Of a stretch of 34,196 bases of DNA, positions 9,006 to 27,684 are shown piece after piece; position 1 is the first letter of the stretch; every line of letters begins with the position of its first letter. This DNA is from a virus. The translations under genes and the position numbers were made by a program. Below the pieces are notes generated by a model. The model was not told the origin of the DNA, made no database searches, and saw nothing but the letters and a program-made list of their open reading frames with translations. The stretch spans positions 1 through 34,196 of IMG/VR virus record IMGVR_UViG_3300046694_000407. One strand, given 5' to 3'.

Positions 9006-10202
9006 ATGAGCGGTTACGTTCCCAACCCGCCGAAAGGCTTTCGCTATAGCGGCGGCGAGCCAGTCGATATCCACGCCCAGCGCTGGGCCGAATACAAAAA
9101 TCTGGCACCGGAACCAGAAGCCAAGCCCGACACCATGGGCTGTGTATTCGCCAAGAGCTGCAACCTCCCAGACGGTGTAATCGATCACAAGAACCAGTCC
9201 GGGTTTGTGCCTATAGAGAAATTGGCCGACTACGGGCTGTGGGCTGTGCTAGGGACTGGGGCAGCAATTTCCACCCAAGGCACCCCACTGCAACTGGTGG
9301 GCGGTTCTACTACTGGCAGTGCAATTGCTCAACGTCTTGGCGGATCGCTATCACTGGGTCTGCTGAAGGGATCAAGCCTTGTTGGTGCGGGCCTCGTAAC
9401 GGGCTTCGTAGGGATGCTGATACCGAACACCAGTATTTCCCCAGACAGCGCCTTCTACAAGAACGATCAATACGCAATGCTTGAAACTGGCCGAACCCGT
9501 GTGCGTGTCAACGTGAAGACGCTACCGGATGGCTCCGTTAACGCTTATGGCTTCTACACGGGCGGTAAGCCGGATTGGGAAGACGTTCCGGTCATCAAGG
9601 GCGATAAATTCGGTGAGACATATGTTGCTGACATCGGCAACGGGATTGGGCTCACTTGGACGCCAGCGGCAAGTGGTGACGGTGTACTGGGTATTCCTGC
9701 ACTGGAAGGCGCACCACAGTTGCCACCCGTCTGGGTATATCCGCCGACTGAACAATCTGACACGGTCCTGGCGAATCCTGCTCATCCTCCCGAGTTCCAA
9801 GATGCAATCATCTGGTTCCCTGACTCTGGGATCGAGCCAATCTACATTGTGCTCAGCGTTCAGTTGGACAACAACAAGAAGCAGGGCAAGGCTTTTGAAG
9901 AAAAATCTTATGGCGAGTACAGCAAAACCAAGCCGGAAGCCGCCCGTGAGGTAACGGTTAAAACCGACAGCGGAGTTAAGACTCGCATTGATATGATGGG
10001 TCGCGATACTGACGGCGAAATCTCATGTGTTGAGTGCAAATCATCTGATACCGCACCACTGACCAAAAATCAGAAAGCAGCCTTCCCAGAAATAGAGAAG
10101 AGTGGTGCAACCATTGTAGGGAAAGGCAAACCGGGATTCCCCGGCGGCAGCCGGATTCCCCCCACCAGAGTCGAAATCCTTCGGCCTGACCCACCCCTCT
10201 GA
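9006..10202 (+). CDS. S-type pyocin domain protein with C-terminal PD-(D/E)XK-like nuclease toxin domain
   Basis: A 398-residue protein; AAGGA lies eight bases before the ATG. Residues about 1-130 are an unfamiliar N-terminal part with a Gly/Ala-rich hydrophobic stretch (about 80-140). Residues about 155-290 are the S-type pyocin domain (RVRVNVKTLPDGSVNAYGFY, GKPDWEDVPVI, GVLGIPALEGAPQLPPVWVYPP, FQDAIIWFP). The end is a toxin domain with Asp329, Glu343-x-Lys345 and Gln356 (RIDMMGR, CVECKSS, LTKNQ), the layout of a PD-(D/E)XK nuclease. At under 400 residues it lacks a normal receptor-binding domain of S-pyocins, so it may be delivered another way or be a reduced bacteriocin. The immunity gene follows after 10 bases. 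Confidence 0.82.
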   Translation: MSGYVPNPPKGFRYSGGEPVDIHAQRWAEYKNLAPEPEAKPDTMGCVFAKSCNLPDGVIDHKNQSGFVPIEKLADYGLWAVLGTGAAISTQGTPLQLVGGSTTGSAIAQRLGGSLSLGLLKGSSLVGAGLVTGFVGMLIPNTSISPDSAFYKNDQYAMLETGRTRVRVNVKTLPDGSVNAYGFYTGGKPDWEDVPVIKGDKFGETYVADIGNGIGLTWTPAASGDGVLGIPALEGAPQLPPVWVYPPTEQSDTVLANPAHPPEFQDAIIWFPDSGIEPIYIVLSVQLDNNKKQGKAFEEKSYGEYSKTKPEAAREVTVKTDSGVKTRIDMMGRDTDGEISCVECKSSDTAPLTKNQKAAFPEIEKSGATIVGKGKPGFPGGSRIPPTRVEILRPDPPL

Positions 10203-11755: not shown

Positions 11756-12793
11756 TCAAACTGAGTCAATTACTGCCCCCTTCTCAACTTCATTTTTTAG
11801 TTGAAGAATATCGCCTATTACCAGGTAAGTATAAATAACGTAACGATCAGCTTCATCCTGTGAAGAGATCACGTGGTGAGATCCTTTCTGGGCGGCCTGA
11901 AAAATGGAGTCTAGTCTTTCACCCAAATATCGCATATGAGATCCGACGATTTCGTTGAAGCGATCCGAATCGGAATTTTCTTCAACATAAGCAATTAATC
12001 TATTTATGTAATTATCTGGACCAAGCTTAATTATTTTTTGCTTTCCGCCTGCAGCTACTTCCTTGTCTGCCCTAGGCGGATAAACCCCATCTGCAGTTTC
12101 TTGAAGTATCCGGCGGCAGCTATGCACGGCATTCGCCCAATCTTCATCATTTTCTGAAATTAAGTTCTCGTAAACTGCAGAGAATTTTCTGATTGCTCCA
12201 GGGACCAATTCACCAATTTTTTTGTCGACTTTCGATCTTGTTCTTTCGAATATATCGCTCGGTATCGAAGAGAACTTAAGCTCAAAGTATACGGAGCTTA
12301 CGTAAGCGTGAATGTAAGCTCTACGAGCCGATAGCCACCTGGATCTGTCACTGATGGTTTCGCGTAAAGCCGCTCTTTCGCGCCCGTTGCCTGTTGGGTT
12401 GGAGACAAACTGTTTGGGGTTGGCAGATGAGATCGACATACTAACGTCAGCCGCCGCAAGAATGTTCTCCTTGGCAGTGAGCATTTCGAGCTCCAACTGC
12501 TCCAAGGAATCGCATTTGCAGTACTCTTTTTCCTTTTCCTCTCTGATCTCTTTATAAATTCTGCCTGCTAATGCTGCAAGGCGCCAAACGCTCGCCTCAA
12601 TACCCTTTGGGGTCTTGGGGTATCCACTTGCTTCATACATCATGATCTGTTGCTGGTCGAAGTCACCCAAAAGCCTAGCGAGCCTACTGGCTTTCAGCGC
12701 AATTGACGTTAACGGAGACTGACTCAGCTCAATTTCCGATAAAATCGCTTCGCTCAATGGAAGCGCTTCCTTCATGGTGCCGGGTTGACTCAT
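11756..12793 (-). CDS. AbiTii-domain protein, candidate abortive-infection/defence factor
   Basis: A 345-residue soluble protein. Its first 65 residues (LSEAILSEIELSQSPLTSIA, LKASRLARLLGDFDQQQI, MYEASGYP) match the AbiTii N-terminal domain, named after the lactococcal phage-resistance protein AbiT. Residues 66-345 are helical and charged, with no catalytic motif I can name (...ENDEDWANAVHSCRRILQETADG in the middle). The gene is AT-rich, sits 95 bases after the coiled-coil membrane protein gene and is probably in one operon with it. A role in phage defence is inferred from the domain and the island context. The AbiTii call is fairly secure, the effector activity unknown. Confidence 0.75.
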   Translation of the reverse strand: MSQPGTMKEALPLSEAILSEIELSQSPLTSIALKASRLARLLGDFDQQQIMMYEASGYPKTPKGIEASVWRLAALAGRIYKEIREEKEKEYCKCDSLEQLELEMLTAKENILAAADVSMSISSANPKQFVSNPTGNGRERAALRETISDRSRWLSARRAYIHAYVSSVYFELKFSSIPSDIFERTRSKVDKKIGELVPGAIRKFSAVYENLISENDEDWANAVHSCRRILQETADGVYPPRADKEVAAGGKQKIIKLGPDNYINRLIAYVEENSDSDRFNEIVGSHMRYLGERLDSIFQAAQKGSHHVISSQDEADRYVIYTYLVIGDILQLKNEVEKGAVIDSV

Positions 12794-12887: not shown

Positions 12888-14360
12888 TTATTCTTTTTTC
12901 GCTAGCTCAACCAATTTCTTAAGTTCTTCTAGGCTGAACTTCTCAAGTAGTCGATGAATGGGCATTTTCTCAGTGTGTTTACCATCCAGTGTGTTTGAAG
13001 CATTAAACGAGATCGCTTCAATTGCTCTGGCAATTAATTCTTTCTGTAAAACATCTGCGTCAATTTGGAGCGCTTGGAGCTGATTCTTATAGCTCTCGTA
13101 AGAAGACGCAAACGCCTCTTTATGAGCATACTCTTGCTGAAGACGCTCATATTGACTACGGCGAGTTGCTGAAAATATAGCGACCCAGATCACAGGCAAA
13201 ATAATTGGGCCTCTGGTCAAGAGCGTTCGTATCATTTCCTCCCAAGTGCTCGTTTTTACGAATTCAAAATGAAAAGGTGACAGATTTATGTTTTCTGAAA
13301 CGATCGTCAACCCACCTAAAAATAACGTCAGCATCGCGGCATAAAATGCTATTGTATATCCAATGATAGGTATATTGAATTTGTCCTTGATCTTTTTGTA
13401 AGCAGATGCCAGTCCTGCGCTAGTTGCGCCGGGTAGCAACGATTCTATACTGACGAATAGTGCTTCCTGGCGTTTAGTTTGTAGCTCTTCGTGATCAGTT
13501 AACTGCTGTAGCCGTAAATCGAGTTCGCGATTTAGTCCGACTTCTTGGACTTCCTCGCCATCAGCAGCTTGACGCCCAAAAATGCGCTCATAGAATCTTT
13601 CTATTTCTTCATCTCTCGCTAATGCTGAATTAATCATCTTATTCATTGAGCGGTGTGTTTTTTCTGCTTCTTCTTTAAATACTTTGATTTTTTCATAAGT
13701 TGACTCAGGACCTTCGAAAAGCGTTTTGTACAGAATCTCTACTCTATCCTGTTTTTCTTTAATGTCGAACACCATCTCCTTGACGTATTTCTCTGCTGGG
13801 TTATTTCCATCTACACCCTCGAAGAGATACTCATCAAACTGCTTTGCTCGACTTTCAATATCCGCAATTTGCTGCTGTTGGTTTACAGCAGCACTCAAGG
13901 CGGTTTCAATTCGAACCTGCACCTTTTGGGTCTGTTCTTGGAAAGACTTTACATACTGCGAGATTTGATTAACAAAAGCTCGCTCAGCTTTACCAAATGC
14001 TTCCAAAGCTTGTTGTGGGAGAATCATATACGGCCGAACATATGTCAAAAGATTATCGGCGTGTTCGTTTGCCTGGATGAGATATGCAACATTTCGATTA
14101 CTTTCATATGATCGAGCTTGTTGCAAACATGCTTCAGACTGGCTGAGGCAATTCGCCCACACTGATTTGGGCGTAAGCTCCATATCAGCATTAGCAATGA
14201 TACTGTCGACAAACACGAGCACCTTTTTAAGTCTCGCAAGTTCTTCAACTGTCGTCATTACAGTCTGATCATCCACGTCCATAGACGCGACAGTTTCCAT
14301 TAGCAACGCCCACGTCGCCTTAAAAGGATATTGTTCGAATTCTTGGATCCATCTCGTCAT
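12888..14360 (-). CDS. Coiled-coil protein with two membrane helices, candidate defence partner
   Basis: A 490-residue protein; the start MTRWIQEFEQ has GGAAGGAA seven bases upstream, a better choice than the ATG nine codons earlier. Residues about 1-130 are globular. About 130-320 form long coiled coils (IADIESRAKQFDEYLF, KVFKEEAEKTHRSMNKMI, LDLRLQQLTDHEELQTKRQ). The motif SLLPGATSAGLASAYKK (about 310-327) precedes helix 1 (GYTIAFYAAMLTLFLGGLTI) and helix 2 (GPIILPVIWVAIFSA), and another coiled coil ends the protein. I do not know a named family with certainty. Its layout, sensor-like coil plus membrane hairpin, resembles membrane effectors near defence genes. Strongly AT-rich. Confidence 0.7.
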   Translation of the reverse strand: MTRWIQEFEQYPFKATWALLMETVASMDVDDQTVMTTVEELARLKKVLVFVDSIIANADMELTPKSVWANCLSQSEACLQQARSYESNRNVAYLIQANEHADNLLTYVRPYMILPQQALEAFGKAERAFVNQISQYVKSFQEQTQKVQVRIETALSAAVNQQQQIADIESRAKQFDEYLFEGVDGNNPAEKYVKEMVFDIKEKQDRVEILYKTLFEGPESTYEKIKVFKEEAEKTHRSMNKMINSALARDEEIERFYERIFGRQAADGEEVQEVGLNRELDLRLQQLTDHEELQTKRQEALFVSIESLLPGATSAGLASAYKKIKDKFNIPIIGYTIAFYAAMLTLFLGGLTIVSENINLSPFHFEFVKTSTWEEMIRTLLTRGPIILPVIWVAIFSATRRSQYERLQQEYAHKEAFASSYESYKNQLQALQIDADVLQKELIARAIEAISFNASNTLDGKHTEKMPIHRLLEKFSLEELKKLVELAKKE

Positions 14361-14526
14361 TTGGCGTTCCTTCCTTCGCTGGACCAATATTACGCGGTGA
14401 TCAGGATTCGATACTACATTGAATTCCGATAGTCGATGTCGGATGGGGCAATCGACAACGGTGCTTTAGGCTGGAAAGGATAGGTCATGAACGTCTGCGT
14501 GACCGAACGCTGCCAGCTGCGACTGA

Positions 14527-22397: not shown

Positions 22398-25214
22398 TTA
22401 GATATGCGGTTCGTCGTACAGCTTGGCGGCGTTCTGTTTCGCCGCGTCGGCCATCATTCGCTGCATGTGTGGCATCAGATCCTGAGCCATTTGCTGCGGG
22501 TCTTTGACATCACCCTGCACCGTGACCGGCATGTTCAGCGAGTATTGAAACTGCTGATCGACTTTCGCCGGTACCGGCTTTTCTGGCTCCTTGGCCTGGA
22601 TCGCCAACGCCGCCGACTTCAGCGGCTCAGTGACCGCCATCGAGCGCGCAGCATCACCCAGCACCGGGCCTTGCGGCGGCACCTGCGCCATCATCAGCGG
22701 GGTCGTCGGCACCGGGGCTTTTTCCTCGGGCTTTTCGTCCTCGCCACCGAACAGCGCTTTGCCCAGGGAACCGCCCAGCGCGGCGCCGCCCTGGCTACCG
22801 AGGTAAGCCCCGATCAAGCCGCCGATCGCTGTGCCGATGACCGGCACCACCGAACCGATGGCCGCCCCTGCGGCCATGCCGGCCATGGTGCCCGCCATAT
22901 TGCCGGCCGCCGCGCCGTAACCCTCGGCCTTTTCATCCTTGGTCTTGGCGTTCTCAAAGGTGTCGTAAGCCATGGAACTGGCTTCCATCAGCGAACCGCC
23001 TGGAATGAACTTGCCGACCTTGCCGACCTTGCCGGCCGCCTTCATGACCGTGCCCAGCTTGGACGCCGCCGCCCCGGGTACCGGCGGCACTGGCGGAATC
23101 GGCGGCCGTGGTACAGGCACCGGCGGACGGGGTACGGGCGGACGCGAACCGCCGGCACGACGGCGGGAGCGTCTCGACCCACGCGAACGTCGACGCGATT
23201 CACCCGGGCCGTCTGCACCACCCGCTCCGCCGGCGCCGCCCATGGCACTGGCGTTGACGACAAACACCTTTTTGACCTCGTCGCCGCCACCGCCTGACTC
23301 GCCGCCGTCGCCATCGTCGTCGCCACCTGAGGCCGCTTCCTTGGCAATTGAAACCACCTTGAGGCCGGTGCTGATCAAGTCGAACTTGCCGGCCTTCTTG
23401 TCGTCGCCCTCGCCACCCTCGCCTTCGCTATCGCCCTCGCCGTCGATGGGCACGCCCTTGTACGCGGCCACAGCCTTGAGGCCGGTTTCTACCAGCGACA
23501 GCGCCTTGCCGGCCTTGCCCTTGGGTTCGGCCTCCTTGTCGTCGCCGCCATCGCCATCCCCGTCCTTGGCGTTGGTCACAAAGACCTTCTGCACCTCGCC
23601 GGACTTGCCGCCGCCCAAAGAACCGCGCGCCAGATTGAACAGGCCTTTGCCGATCTTGAACGAACTGAACAAGCCTTTGAGCGCGATCAGGCCACCGCCG
23701 ACCGCGACAACGCCCGTCACCACCCCGGGCGCGCTGTCAGACAGCGAGGTAATGCCCTTGGTGACTTTGGTCAGCGAATCTGCCACCAGATCCGTGACCG
23801 GCCGTAATGCGTCCCCCACGCTGCGCATGGCGTCGTCCATCGACTGGGCCATTTCGGCCCACTTTTGCGAGGACGATTGACGCCGCTCGGCAAGGTTCTT
23901 GTCGAGGATCCCGGTCGCATCGCGCGAATCGTTCTTGAGCTGCGCATACAGCGCCTTGTTCTGCATGTAGGCCGACAGCGCGGCCTTGACCTGCATGTCG
24001 GCGAACAGGTCGCCGGTGCGCAAGGATTCCTCCAGCGAGGCCATCATGGCCTTGGCCTTGTCCGGGTTGGCTTCCTTGCTGATCTTGGACGTCGCTTCAG
24101 CCATGGCCGCCGCGCGCTTCGGATCCGTGGCCTGAATGTACTTCTGTGCCAACGCCATGCTGGTTTCGAGCGTGGACATGCCGTTTTGCAAACCGGTCTG
24201 CATCGAGCCCTTGTAGTCGATACCGGCCTTCTCGTACGCCTTTACGGTGTCGGTTGAGCCGATTTTGCCCATCCAGTTTTTCAGGTTGTTGGCCGCCTCG
24301 TCCGAGCTGCCCGCCTGTTTCATCTGCACCTGCAGCATGGCGCCCAGTTGCGTCACCGCGTCCATGCCGGTGATACCGTTGCTGGCCATGTTGGCCAGCA
24401 ATTCGGGAAACCACTTGGCCATGTCGGCCGCCTCAAAGCTGCCGGCCTGCCCTTGGTAGGCGATCGCTTCAAGGGCCTGCTGCATCTGCTTGGGGTCGGT
24501 GATCTTGGCGTTCTGCCCCAGGGCATTGATCATTTTCGCCGTGTCGACGCCGCTGGAACCTTGCCCGACCACGAACTTGGCCGCGACCGGCGCGTACTCC
24601 AGCGCCTTGCTCAGATCCATACCGGCGCCGACCAACTGGTTGACCACATCGGCCACGTCGTTGCGCGCCATGCCGGTATCGCGCGAGGTGTCGATGATCT
24701 TGCGCGACATCTCCTGCTCTTGCGGCTTGTTGGCAATGCCGGCCTTGATCGCGATGTCCCGCACGATCGCGCCAAAATCGGCGCTGACCTTCGTTGGCAC
24801 CGCCAAGGCGCCGATCCCCACCACTGCTGCGCCGGCTGCGCCTTTCATGCCTTTAACGCCGGCATCAAGCTGCTGCTGTCCACGGGCTTTCTGCTCGGCC
24901 TTGTTCGCCGCCCGGCCCATCGACTGATAGGCCTTCTCCAGCCGACCGACTTCGACGCCCTGCTTTTTCAGGCTGTCGAGATTGGAGTTCAACCGGCCCA
25001 GCAGTTTCGACGCGCCGGCCGCACCGCTGTCATGCGCCTTTTTCCACTCTTCGCGAAGGCGAATGGTGTCGCCGATCGCATTTTGCAAAACGCGCGCTTT
25101 CTTGCCTTCTTCCTCAAGGCGCTTGATACGCCCGGTGACGTCCTTGAACGCGGCGCCAACCGTCGAACTGACAGCCCCGCCGATGACCAGCCCGAGGGCG
25201 ATTTTGTTTGCCAT
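22398..25214 (-). CDS. Tail tape measure protein (gpT) with a low-complexity insert
   Basis: A 938-residue protein. Residues about 1-130 are coiled-coil rich; about 145-470 are the tape-measure core (DFGAIVRDIAIKAGIANKPQ, ARNDVADVVNQLVGAG, MINALGQNAKITDPKQM). Residues about 535-725 are low complexity: acidic Gly runs, two related segments (KVFVTNAKDGDG and KVFVVNASAMGG; LVETGLKAVAAY and LISTGLKVVSIA), an Arg/Ser stretch and a PPVP/RPP tract. About 760-860 is Gly/Ala-rich hydrophobic (MAGTMAGMAAGAAIGSVVPV), likely the membrane-passing part. It sets tail length; at about 1.5 A per residue, roughly 140 nm. Confidence 0.92.
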   Translation of the reverse strand: MANKIALGLVIGGAVSSTVGAAFKDVTGRIKRLEEEGKKARVLQNAIGDTIRLREEWKKAHDSGAAGASKLLGRLNSNLDSLKKQGVEVGRLEKAYQSMGRAANKAEQKARGQQQLDAGVKGMKGAAGAAVVGIGALAVPTKVSADFGAIVRDIAIKAGIANKPQEQEMSRKIIDTSRDTGMARNDVADVVNQLVGAGMDLSKALEYAPVAAKFVVGQGSSGVDTAKMINALGQNAKITDPKQMQQALEAIAYQGQAGSFEAADMAKWFPELLANMASNGITGMDAVTQLGAMLQVQMKQAGSSDEAANNLKNWMGKIGSTDTVKAYEKAGIDYKGSMQTGLQNGMSTLETSMALAQKYIQATDPKRAAAMAEATSKISKEANPDKAKAMMASLEESLRTGDLFADMQVKAALSAYMQNKALYAQLKNDSRDATGILDKNLAERRQSSSQKWAEMAQSMDDAMRSVGDALRPVTDLVADSLTKVTKGITSLSDSAPGVVTGVVAVGGGLIALKGLFSSFKIGKGLFNLARGSLGGGKSGEVQKVFVTNAKDGDGDGGDDKEAEPKGKAGKALSLVETGLKAVAAYKGVPIDGEGDSEGEGGEGDDKKAGKFDLISTGLKVVSIAKEAASGGDDDGDGGESGGGGDEVKKVFVVNASAMGGAGGAGGADGPGESRRRSRGSRRSRRRAGGSRPPVPRPPVPVPRPPIPPVPPVPGAAASKLGTVMKAAGKVGKVGKFIPGGSLMEASSMAYDTFENAKTKDEKAEGYGAAAGNMAGTMAGMAAGAAIGSVVPVIGTAIGGLIGAYLGSQGGAALGGSLGKALFGGEDEKPEEKAPVPTTPLMMAQVPPQGPVLGDAARSMAVTEPLKSAALAIQAKEPEKPVPAKVDQQFQYSLNMPVTVQGDVKDPQQMAQDLMPHMQRMMADAAKQNAAKLYDEPHI

Positions 25215-25253: not shown

Positions 25254-25370
25254 TCAGTCCGTGAGCCACCACACCATTTCCGCAAAGGGCATTTCCTGGA
25301 TTTCGGCGGCAGAGAATCCAGTCTCCGCCGCCAGACGTTTTGCCGCCCCTTTGATCACGCTGGGGTTAAA
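25254..25370 (-). CDS. gpE' extension reached by frameshift from gpE
   Basis: After the gpE stop, the +1 frame reads FNPSVIKGAAKRLAAETGFS, then AAEIQEMPFAEMVWWLTD and stops: 38 residues. The AEMVWW ending is typical of the P2 GpE/E' family. There is no start with a ribosome site for this frame; it is open inside gpE, as expected for a frameshift extension. The product gpE-E' is a tail assembly chaperone that guides tape measure and tube assembly in minor amounts. Confidence 0.75.
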   Translation of the reverse strand, partial: FNPSVIKGAAKRLAAETGFSAAEIQEMPFAEMVWWLTD

Positions 25371-25374
25371 GCCC
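25366..25374 (-). other. Putative +1 frameshift site GGG CTT TAA
   Basis: gpE ends GGG CTT TAA C. A slip of the Leu-tRNA from CTT to TTT followed by AAC enters E'. The CTT-stop arrangement equals that of the prfB +1 site (CTT TGA C). A -2 slip would reach the same frame. Confidence 0.6.
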
Positions 25375-25965
25375 GTCGTCGTTGTCCATGCGAAAATAGC
25401 CGGCCTGCAAGCGGCTGAAGTCCACCAGTTTGAGATTCTCCAGATCCGCCACCGGCGCCCCGGACAATGCGGAGAACAGCACCAGCTCGCGCTGTTCGGC
25501 GTCACCGCCGGCCTCGCGGTTGGCTTCGCGCACGTCACGCACGGTCGGCGAACGCAAGGCGAGCTTGTCGACCAGCACGTCGTTGATCTTGCTCGGGCTG
25601 GAGAACGTCACCAGCGCCTGATCGGTGGTGACCGACAACCACGCCGGTTTCGACGTGGAGTAATCGGTATCAGGTGCCAGAGTCGAATAGGCCGTTTGCA
25701 CACGGCGATAGTCCGTCAGCTTGAGCCCTTCCAGATCCTTGAGTCCGACCTCGGTCAGGCCGGCGAACAGCATCAGCTCGCGCTGCTCGTCGTTACCGTT
25801 CGACGCGTGATCAGCGGCACGCACCGCGCGCACCGAGGGCGCGCGCATGGTCAGCGTTTCAACGTTGACGCCGTTGGCCTCGCTCGGACGCGTGAGCGTC
25901 ACCACAGCGCCGTCAGCGGTGATCGACAGCCAGGCCGGCAGTGGTTTATTAGTTGCTTGAGTCAT
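25366..25965 (-). CDS. Tail assembly chaperone gpE with a tandemly duplicated domain
   Basis: A 199-residue protein made of two similar halves. Half 1 (about 10-95): PAWLSITADGAVVTLTRPS, LTMRAPSVRAVRAADHA, EQRELMLFAGLTEV, DLEGLKLTDYRRVQTAY. Half 2 (about 108-193): PAWLSVTTDQALVTFSSPS, LALRSPTVRDVREANRE, EQRELVLFSALSGA, DLENLKLVDFSRLQAGY. Single-domain gpE is about 90 residues in P2. The stop is followed in the +1 frame by E'. The protein is a non-structural chaperone for the tape measure. Confidence 0.88.
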   Translation of the reverse strand: MTQATNKPLPAWLSITADGAVVTLTRPSEANGVNVETLTMRAPSVRAVRAADHASNGNDEQRELMLFAGLTEVGLKDLEGLKLTDYRRVQTAYSTLAPDTDYSTSKPAWLSVTTDQALVTFSSPSKINDVLVDKLALRSPTVRDVREANREAGGDAEQRELVLFSALSGAPVADLENLKLVDFSRLQAGYFRMDNDDGL

Positions 25966-25979
25966 GTTGTTCCAGTCCC

Positions 25980-26483
25980 TTAGAGGCCGAGCGCGGCGCG
26001 TATTTCCGCCAGTTGATCTTTACCGTCGACGACTTGAATGCCGGCAACCATGTCGATTTCGTACATCAGGCGCCCGTCGATTTCGAGCTTGTAATAAGTG
26101 ACTGCGACGGCGTGCTTGATCTCGGCCGCATCACCGGCCTTCCAGTCGCCCAGGTCGACCTCTTTGAGCAGGCCGCGCAAGGTGGCGACGACTGCCGTCA
26201 CCGCGCCCTTCTGACCACGGAAGGCACCCCGGAACGTGGCATTGAAAGCGGTGCCATCGGCGAGACCGAAGTACTTCAGCGACTCACGGCGCACGCCCTT
26301 GGTGACGAAACTCGCCTCCATCTTTTCAAGACCCTGATTCATCTCGATCGAGCCGGCCATGCCACCGCCGCGATACTCGTCGGTCTTGGTGGTCAGCTTG
26401 GGCAGCGTCAGGCTCGGCACGTCGCCGGAAAAGTTCACGCCGTCGACAAACAGGTTGGTGTTGTACAAAGTCTGAGGAATCAT
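25980..26483 (-). CDS. Major tail tube protein (gpFII)
   Basis: A 167-residue protein MIPQTLYNTNLFVDGVNFSG, with PKLTTKTDEYRGGGMAGSIEM, EKMEASFVTKGV, and the C-terminal half IKHAVAVTYYKLEIDGRLMYEID. This is the standard pattern of the P2 FII contractile tail tube. It polymerises around the tape measure to make the rigid inner tube. It starts 14 bases after the sheath stop, as in P2. Confidence 0.94.
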   Translation of the reverse strand: MIPQTLYNTNLFVDGVNFSGDVPSLTLPKLTTKTDEYRGGGMAGSIEMNQGLEKMEASFVTKGVRRESLKYFGLADGTAFNATFRGAFRGQKGAVTAVVATLRGLLKEVDLGDWKAGDAAEIKHAVAVTYYKLEIDGRLMYEIDMVAGIQVVDGKDQLAEIRAALGL

Positions 26484-26496
26484 CTGCTAGGCCCCC

Positions 26497-27663
26497 TTAG
26501 GCTGCTTCAAGCACTTCGGTCATCCATTGATCGGTGACCTCGAAAAGGAAATTCGGGTTCTCTGCCGGCGGCACGTCGGTGAAGCGGATGCGCCAATACA
26601 CTTTGCCTTGGGCGATCTGGCTGGCCGTGTTCAGCTCGGTGTCCGGGAACACTTCAAAGTTGATGATCGCGCCCTGGGCTTTCAGGTCGCCCATGAACGC
26701 GTTGAGGCCGTTGGTCACGTCGCTGACGTAGGTCTTGGTGATCGAGCGATCGACCGCCCACTTGTGCCCGGCCTGCACCGCATCCATCAGGATGAACAGC
26801 GTGCGCACGCGGGTGACGAACGCCCATTTCGGGTCGCTCGACAGCGTGCGGTTACCCCACAGGCGATAACCGTCATCCCGGATGATCGTGGCGATATTGG
26901 CGTTATTGAGCAGGTTGGCCCGGCAAGTCTCGTCGCCGTCCAGGTACTCGACCGCGCGGCCGGTGCCAGTGATGCCGGCGAACTCTTTGTTCGAAGGCGA
27001 TGCCCAGAAACCGTACTCAGCATCCGTCCACGCAAACAGACCCGCCGCCCAGGCCGAGCCGGGTGCGTCGATCGTCGCGCTGGTGACGGTGTCCCAGAAC
27101 TGCACACCCGGGTCGACCATGTACAGGTTGCGGCTGCCGAAGTTCTCGGCATAGGCCATGGCGGCCTCATCGGTGGTACCCGGGCCGTCAAGGATGGCGA
27201 TCGCGCGCAGCTTCTGCGCCACGCTGTCGATCGCCGTAGCCACCGCTTGAGTCCTGGTATGACCCGGCGCGATCAACAGCCGCGGCTGTGCGTTGTACAT
27301 GCTTTTGCCGTCGATCAGCGCTTGCAGGCCGGTACGCTGGCCCGAGACCAGAACGCCGCCGATGATCGCCGAGGTTTGCAGCGCGGCGTCTTCCAGCTTG
27401 GGCACGCCGATGGCGACGATCACCGCCTTGGCTTTGACGTAGATCGCCTGACAGGCCTTGGTGATAGCCGAGTCAGCACCAAAGGCGGCGATCGCCTCGC
27501 GCTCAGTGGTGATCAACTTCAGCTCGCCGGCCTTGGCCGTACCACCGCCGAGAATGCCCGGGGTGAAGGTGTCGCAAAGACCGATGATCGAAGACGACGG
27601 CAGCGAAATGGTGCGCGCCCCCGTCTTGATTTCGGTGGTCGTAACGCCGTGAAAGAAACTCAT
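26497..27663 (-). CDS. Tail sheath protein (gpFI)
   Basis: A 388-residue protein. I start at MSFFHGVTTTEI since GGAGA lies nine bases before this ATG; a TTG three codons up is less likely. Hallmarks: PSSSIIGLCDTF, LLIAPGHT, AIAILDGP, SRNLYMVDPGVQ, GSAWAAGLFAWTD, NNANIATIIRDDGYRLWGNRT, VRTLFILMDAV and FEVTDQWMTEV. It forms the contracting sheath that drives the tube through the envelope. Two terminators and the 12-bp palindrome lie between it and the upstream gene. Confidence 0.95.
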   Translation of the reverse strand: MSFFHGVTTTEIKTGARTISLPSSSIIGLCDTFTPGILGGGTAKAGELKLITTEREAIAAFGADSAITKACQAIYVKAKAVIVAIGVPKLEDAALQTSAIIGGVLVSGQRTGLQALIDGKSMYNAQPRLLIAPGHTRTQAVATAIDSVAQKLRAIAILDGPGTTDEAAMAYAENFGSRNLYMVDPGVQFWDTVTSATIDAPGSAWAAGLFAWTDAEYGFWASPSNKEFAGITGTGRAVEYLDGDETCRANLLNNANIATIIRDDGYRLWGNRTLSSDPKWAFVTRVRTLFILMDAVQAGHKWAVDRSITKTYVSDVTNGLNAFMGDLKAQGAIINFEVFPDTELNTASQIAQGKVYWRIRFTDVPPAENPNFLFEVTDQWMTEVLEAA

Positions 27664-27684
27664 AAAGTCCAATCTCCAGAAACG

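What the first reader, a model, noticed from the sequence alone, without database searches (positions are those of the whole stretch)
25254..25374. Probable +1 programmed frameshift (CTT TAA C) making gpE-E'
gpE stops at GGG CTT TAA; the +1 frame continues directly into a 38-residue E' tail with the family ending AEMVWW. P2 uses a -1 shift and Mu a -2 shift, while a CTT-stop +1 slip is the mechanism of prfB. Here the frame relation is +1 or -2, not -1, and a +1 slip on CTT T is the simplest reading.
Basis: partly seen in the sequence, partly recalled or inferred. Interest (0 to 1): 0.68.

Follow-up and report, generated by a model that had tools for sequence, protein, structure and literature searches.

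The report
+1 frameshift at UUU-C makes tail chaperone

Summary
In detail: gpE (window 25366-25965, minus) ends GGG CTT TAA, and a conserved gpE'-like tail (...AEMVWWLTD) follows in the +1 frame. In 340 distinct related sequences from Pseudomonas prophages, tailocins and genomes the E-to-E' relation is always +1. A sister group of phages reaches the homologous E' by -1.

NTT-stop is kept in 51 of 67 sequence clusters. It is absent from R-pyocin-type genes, and in four genomes the E stop lies upstream of it, so ribosomes could not reach it there. An in-frame TTT|C (usually TAY TTT CGY; window 25398-25390) occurs 7-9 codons before E' in 340 of 340 sequences and all 67 clusters. The +1 frame is open from it to E' every time. 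In 29 broader clusters TTT occurs 29 times, against 13 expected from codon usage. Codons from it to the E stop show excess synonymous constraint and an invariant +1-frame Trp; the E' codons just after do not show the excess.

UUU_Ynn is a known +1-prone site in bacteria, and UUU_CGN is the influenza PA-X/amalgavirus motif. I conclude a UUU_C +1 frameshift, a new variant of tail-chaperone frameshifting. No experiment was done.

The parts
25366..25965 (-). gpE-like tail assembly chaperone, 199 aa, two tandem Phage_TAC_7 domains; ends GGG CTT TAA
25390..25398 (-). TAT TTT CGC: most likely +1 slip site (TTT at 25395-25393, followed by C 25392). tRNA-Phe would move from UUU to UUC; reading resumes at GCA (25391)
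   Evidence: in-frame TTT|C in 340/340 sequences, 67/67 clusters; synonymous constraint z 12.5 at this codon
25254..25391 (-). +1-frame part of E-E' after a UUU_C slip: AWTTTTGFNPSVIKGAAKRLAAETGFSAAEIQEMPFAEMVWWLTD* (45 codons plus stop); E-E' would be 236 aa
   Evidence: phrog_10636 match; pN/pS 0.38 in the +1 frame after the E stop
25365..25371 (-).
   Evidence: counter-examples
25369..25392 (-). dual-coded stretch: 0 frame RMDNDDGL, +1 frame AWTTTTGF
   Evidence: excess synonymous constraint at most codons from -9 to -1; pS 0.366 here against 0.580 just upstream; +1-frame Trp invariant
22398..25214 (-). tape measure protein T, downstream of E'
25980..26483 (-). tail tube protein FII, upstream of E
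26497..27672 (-). tail sheath protein FI
25304..25333 (-). 12-bp hairpin inside E' (GGCGGCGGAGA/TCTCTGCCGCC); seen in the two-domain subfamily, 35-64 nt after the first base of the E stop; probably not part of the shift signal

Best explanation
The locus encodes a P2-like tail assembly chaperone pair, E and E-E', from one start codon. Most ribosomes read E to its TAA. A minority, with UAU in the E site, UUU in the P site and CGC waiting in the A site, slip forward one base: tRNA-Phe (anticodon GAA) leaves UUU and re-pairs with UUC, where its third pair is better. They then read GCA TGG ... and add a 45-residue tail, giving the 236-aa E-E'. By analogy with lambda G/GT and P2 E/E+E', E would coat the tape measure protein and the tail of E-E' would recruit tube subunits; this function is inferred. 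Shown by comparison: the +1 relation, coding selection on E', invariance of TTT|C and the open +1 frame from it. Inferred: that ribosomes slip there, and how often. The CTT TAA C eight codons later may add some shifting in lineages that have it.
For: In-frame TTT|C is found 7-9 codons before E' codon 1 in 340/340 distinct +1 sequences, in 67/67, 29/29 and 16/16 clusters at 85%, 75% and 68% nt identity, with no +1-frame stop in between. At 75% clustering, TTT is 29/29 against 13.1 expected from synonymous codon use (maximum 21 in 2000 simulations), and +1-frame TGG is 29/29 against 22.6 (maximum 28). Synonymous constraint is high from codon -9 (TTT, z 12.5) to -1, for every codon but -5, and absent from E' codons 1-14. 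In L449, L473, L475 and L486 the E stop lies before the NTT position, and in R-pyocin types no stop is there, yet E' in +1 persists. +1 re-pairing at codon -9 is full in 95% of clusters with the stop at the junction; the rest have TTT|C one codon later. UUU_Ynn is described as especially +1-prone in bacteria, and UCC_UUU_CGU is the influenza PA-X site (PMC5009743). A UAU codon also precedes the shift codon in prfB of P. fluorescens (PMC13245932).
Against: No protein or reporter evidence. CGC/CGT were not shown to be slow codons here, and no SD-like or structural stimulator is known for this site (searches tested the NTT-stop region only). NTT-stop conservation is also strong and needs the extra assumption that Phe in the +1 frame is selected. 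pN/pS in the +1 frame over the 8-codon overlap is about 1, as expected for a dual-coded stretch dominated by the 0 frame but not positive proof of +1 coding. Part of the constraint could be an RNA element serving the later site. At the YopN-TyeA UUU site, mutating UUU did not abolish the hybrid (PMC3789692).
Confidence: 0.8

Rival explanations
1. prfB-like +1 slip at CTT TAA C as the only site: tRNA-Leu moves from CUU to UUU while the stop codon waits.
For: NTT is the last codon in 51/57 clusters with the stop at the junction, p about 1e-41 against E codon use, clusters treated as independent; first base of the codon is free while TT-T is fixed; next base C in 38/57; all +1 RECODE sites with CUU before a stop are prfB (PMC10885494) and P. 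fluorescens uses CUU UGA C in prfB (PMC13245932).
Against: Six clusters have NTG TAA, four sequences stop before the site, and R-pyocin types and CTT CAA types have no stop there, all with intact E'. It does not explain the fixed TTT at codon -9. The SD-like stimulator of prfB is absent (duplex -3.0 against -10.6 kcal/mol).
Confidence: 0.1
2. Both sites work: UUU_C first, CTT-stop as a second chance, giving two E-E' products of equal length that differ in eight residues. This overlaps with the best explanation, which leaves it open.
For: Both motifs are above chance in most lineages.
Against: Lineages without the second site keep E'; the second pattern can be explained by a +1-frame Phe.
Confidence: 0.25
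3. A -2 slip, as in phage Mu.
For: The net frame is the same as +1; phage Mu is known to use -2 (PMC5009743).
Against: Full P-site re-pairing by -2 is possible in 0% of clusters at the last codon and 2% at codon -9; no G-run as in Mu.
Confidence: 0.03
4. E' is translated from its own start codon.
For: Some lineages have an ATG or GTG in the +1 frame (the window has GTG at NPSV).
Against: 15 of 67 clusters have no ATG/GTG/TTG in the +1 frame between the nearest upstream stop and E' codon 5; no start position is conserved; GTG in the window is GTT or GTC in many relatives.
Confidence: 0.03

Closest known systems
Phage P2 E/E+E' tail chaperone frameshift
   Same: same gene order FI-FII-E-E'-T and the same chaperone role by position; two products from one start; the P2 site also lies about 20 nt before the E stop
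   Different: P2 uses -1 at TTTTTTG; here +1 at TTT|C. E has two TAC domains in the window's subfamily
E/E' of phages Persinger, FoX1, PPpW-3, Mano, Mica, ep3, Arya, KA2-1, MQ-4
   Same: homologous E and E' tail (most end WWLEG)
   Different: all nine need -1, with sites such as AATTTTA, GGTTTTC, CGTTTTA
prfB (RF2) +1 frameshift
   Same: +1 direction; UAU codon before the shift codon; CTT TAA C present in the window at the E stop
   Different: no SD-like element; stop-codon site not required in relatives; not autoregulatory as far as known
UUU_Ynn +1 sites of bacteria (argI; UUU-pyrimidine studies) and UUU_CGN of influenza PA-X and plant amalgaviruses
   Same: UUU in P site, C next, +1 re-pairing to UUC; here CGC or CGT follows in 333 of 340
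   Different: codon before is TAT/TAC, not UCC; bacterial host; structural chaperone gene
Haloarchaeal myovirus HSTV-2 chaperone
   Same: very likely +1 in a tail chaperone (PMC5009743)
   Different: archaeal virus; site not compared here

Membership tests
Phage tail assembly chaperone pair (E/E+E', G/GT type) | short ORF of a TAC family between major tail/tube gene and tape measure gene | tested here: met
   Phage_TAC_7 twice in E; FII upstream, T downstream
Phage tail assembly chaperone pair (E/E+E', G/GT type) | second conserved ORF in another frame overlapping the 3' end, reached by frameshift | tested here: met
   +1 relation in 340 sequences, coding selection in E'; the frameshift itself is inferred
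Phage tail assembly chaperone pair (E/E+E', G/GT type) | fusion protein made at a low, fixed ratio and needed for tail assembly | not testable with these tools
   needs mass spectrometry and mutants
P2-type -1 slippery site | -1 frame relation with T-rich heptamer | tested here: not met
   frame relation is +1; the -1 frame after the E stop is not conserved
prfB-like shifty stop | CTT followed by TGA or TAA and C | tested here: met
   CTT TAA C at 25371-25365 in the window
prfB-like shifty stop | SD-like AGGGGG three bases before CTT | tested here: not met
   anti-SD duplex mean -3.0 against -10.6 kcal/mol for prfB
prfB-like shifty stop | stop codon at the shift site kept across relatives | tested here: not met
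   absent or unreachable in R-pyocin types, L203/L239 types, L449, L473, L475, L486
UUU_Ynn / UUU_CGN +1 site | in-frame UUU followed by C (CGN) with +1 frame open to the second ORF | tested here: met
   340/340 TTT|C; 334/340 TTT CGN
UUU_Ynn / UUU_CGN +1 site | frameshift product with the UUU junction | not testable with these tools
   no protein data

The most novel reading that the evidence does not exclude
A whole clade of Pseudomonas P2-like prophages and R-type pyocins uses a +1 UUU_CGY slip of the influenza PA-X kind where related phages use -1 for homologous E/E' genes. A frameshifted chaperone, not annotated in the one P. aeruginosa R-pyocin record examined, would then be part of R-pyocin assembly.
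Probability: 0.6. Interest if true: 0.62.

Novelty: new variant of a known kind. Interest (0 to 1): 0.5.

Why it matters
Frameshift direction is usually kept among orthologues (PMC3711429), with tail chaperones a known exception. Here homologous E/E' pairs use -1 in one phage group and +1 in its Pseudomonas relatives, so the switch of mechanism can be studied directly. It also predicts a frameshift product for R-pyocins, where the E' stretch is left unannotated in the P. aeruginosa record examined, and gives a natural bacterial case of the UUU_CGN motif known from eukaryotic viruses. Internal +1 sites are hard to spot; synonymous constraint plus loci with a moved stop codon located this one.

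Tried and rejected
CTT TAA C as the only site: fitted the closest relatives but failed in wider ones. -2 slip: no re-pairing. Own start: no conserved start. Transcription slippage: at most four T in a row, three in TAC TTT lineages. SD-like stimulator of the CTT-stop: absent. Downstream hairpin: strong in the window family but no common structure over 56 clusters (RNAalifold -0.7 kcal/mol), and far from either site. AlphaFold2 of the CTT-slip version without an alignment was poor (pLDDT 42) and not used. Searches of order and class samples found this E' type only in genomes already found in the Pseudomonadaceae searches. Literature searches found no report of this site, but most subscription papers, probably including Xu et al. 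2004, are not in the library.

Full report
What is there. The minus strand of the window carries a P2-like tail gene run: sheath FI (26497-27672), tube FII (25980-26483), gpE (25366-25965) and tape measure T (22398-25214). E is 199 aa with two Phage_TAC_7 domains, against one in most relatives. Its last codons are TAT TTT CGC ATG GAC AAC GAC GAC GGG CTT TAA. The +1 frame continues after the stop as NPSVIKGAAKRLAAETGFSAAEIQEMPFAEMVWWLTD*, matching phrog_10636. The window is an IMG/VR record; the nearest relatives are Pseudomonas fluorescens-group prophages.

Is it chance? No. In 98 close loci the pattern GGG NTT TRA YCC and the tail are kept. I then collected E' relatives from IMG/VR, GTDB genomes and phage records, and found 349 distinct E-E' sequences: 340 with a +1 relation and nine with -1. 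In the +1 set the E' stretch has pN/pS 0.38 in the +1 frame and 1.46 and 1.26 in the other two. E' is therefore very likely a translated protein. In a sample of 299 genomes of the genus, 92 have it; in order and class samples the only hits were five genomes already found in the family search.

Direction. Nine phages with homologous E and E' (Persinger, FoX1, PPpW-3, KA2-1, Arya, ep3, Mano, MQ-4, Mica) have E' in the -1 frame, with T-rich sites like AATTTTA and GGTTTTC; P2 also uses -1. The Pseudomonas set uses +1. A -2 slip like that of Mu is disfavoured because the P-site tRNA would not re-pair.

Where? But a test of synonymous codon variation along E showed constraint starting at codon -9, TTT (53 TTT, 0 TTC, z 12.5), running to -1 with the exception of codon -5, and absent from the first 14 E' codons. 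Codon -9 is followed by CGC or CGT, giving TAY TTT CGY. In-frame TTT|C at 7-9 codons before E' codon 1 is in 340/340 sequences. It is in 67/67, 29/29 and 16/16 clusters at 85, 75 and 68% identity, whereas NTT-stop is in 51, 20 and 8. Simulated synonymous sequences give TTT in 13.1 of 29 clusters, at most 21. Between TTT|C and E' the +1 frame is never closed (29/29 against 26.4 expected, so this point alone is weak) and carries an invariant Trp (29/29 against 22.6 expected), mostly Thr at position 6 and mostly Phe at position 8. Synonymous divergence in the overlap is 0.366 against 0.580 just upstream.

Decisive natural cases. In L449, L473, L475 and L486 the E stop comes two codons before the NTT position (for example TTT CGC CTG GTC AAT GAC GAA TAA CTT CAA), so a slip at NTT cannot be reached, yet E' is intact in +1. 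In R-pyocin-type genes, including P. aeruginosa L099, E runs on past the site with no stop there; in that record E' is not annotated. Six clusters have NTG TAA. All of these keep TTT|C.

Mechanism. The tetranucleotide UUU_Ynn is described as especially prone to +1 frameshifting in bacteria without a stop codon, and UCC_UUU_CGU is the influenza A PA-X site, also used to find amalgavirus sites (PMC5009743; UUU_CGN papers). tRNA-Phe with anticodon GAA re-pairs from UUU to UUC (established decoding knowledge). The preceding UAU/UAC is reminiscent of the UAU in prfB (PMC13245932). No SD-like element was found before the CTT-stop, and no common downstream structure. Efficiency is unknown. Caution: at the YopN-TyeA UUU site, mutation did not abolish the hybrid (PMC3789692).

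Function. By homology with P2 E/E+E' and by analogy with lambda G/GT, E and E-E' should chaperone the tape measure and recruit tube subunits. This is inferred.

Novelty. Tail chaperone frameshifting is known, including -1, -2 and +1 (PMC5009743). In the PRFect paper all RECODE +1 CUU-stop sites are prfB (PMC10885494). I found no report of UUU_C in a P2-like or R-pyocin chaperone, within a library that lacks most subscription journals. I rate it a new variant of a known kind.

Noticed in passing
25366-25965: gpE is a tandem duplication of the TAC_7 domain in this prophage subfamily; most relatives have one domain.
   Followed up: partly
L099 4103-4640 (P. aeruginosa R-pyocin-like record OQ658366): R-pyocin E' lies unannotated in the gap between the E-like CDS and the tape measure; +1 frame with TTT CGC upstream.
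   Followed up: yes
L191-L196: Second two-domain TAC_7 genes in the same Pseudomonas genomes, without a match to this E' family in the searches made.
   Followed up: no
25304-25333: Strong 12-bp hairpin inside E', kept in the two-domain subfamily, with little covariation.
   Followed up: partly
9006-10202: ORF with an S-type pyocin domain on the plus strand inside the prophage.
   Followed up: no
11756-12793: AbiTii-like abortive infection protein, next to a 499-aa ORF (12888-14387) with no Pfam match.
   Followed up: no
L245, L201, L453, L458, L463, L435: Lineages where the last E codon is NTG before TAA although E' stays in +1.
   Followed up: yes
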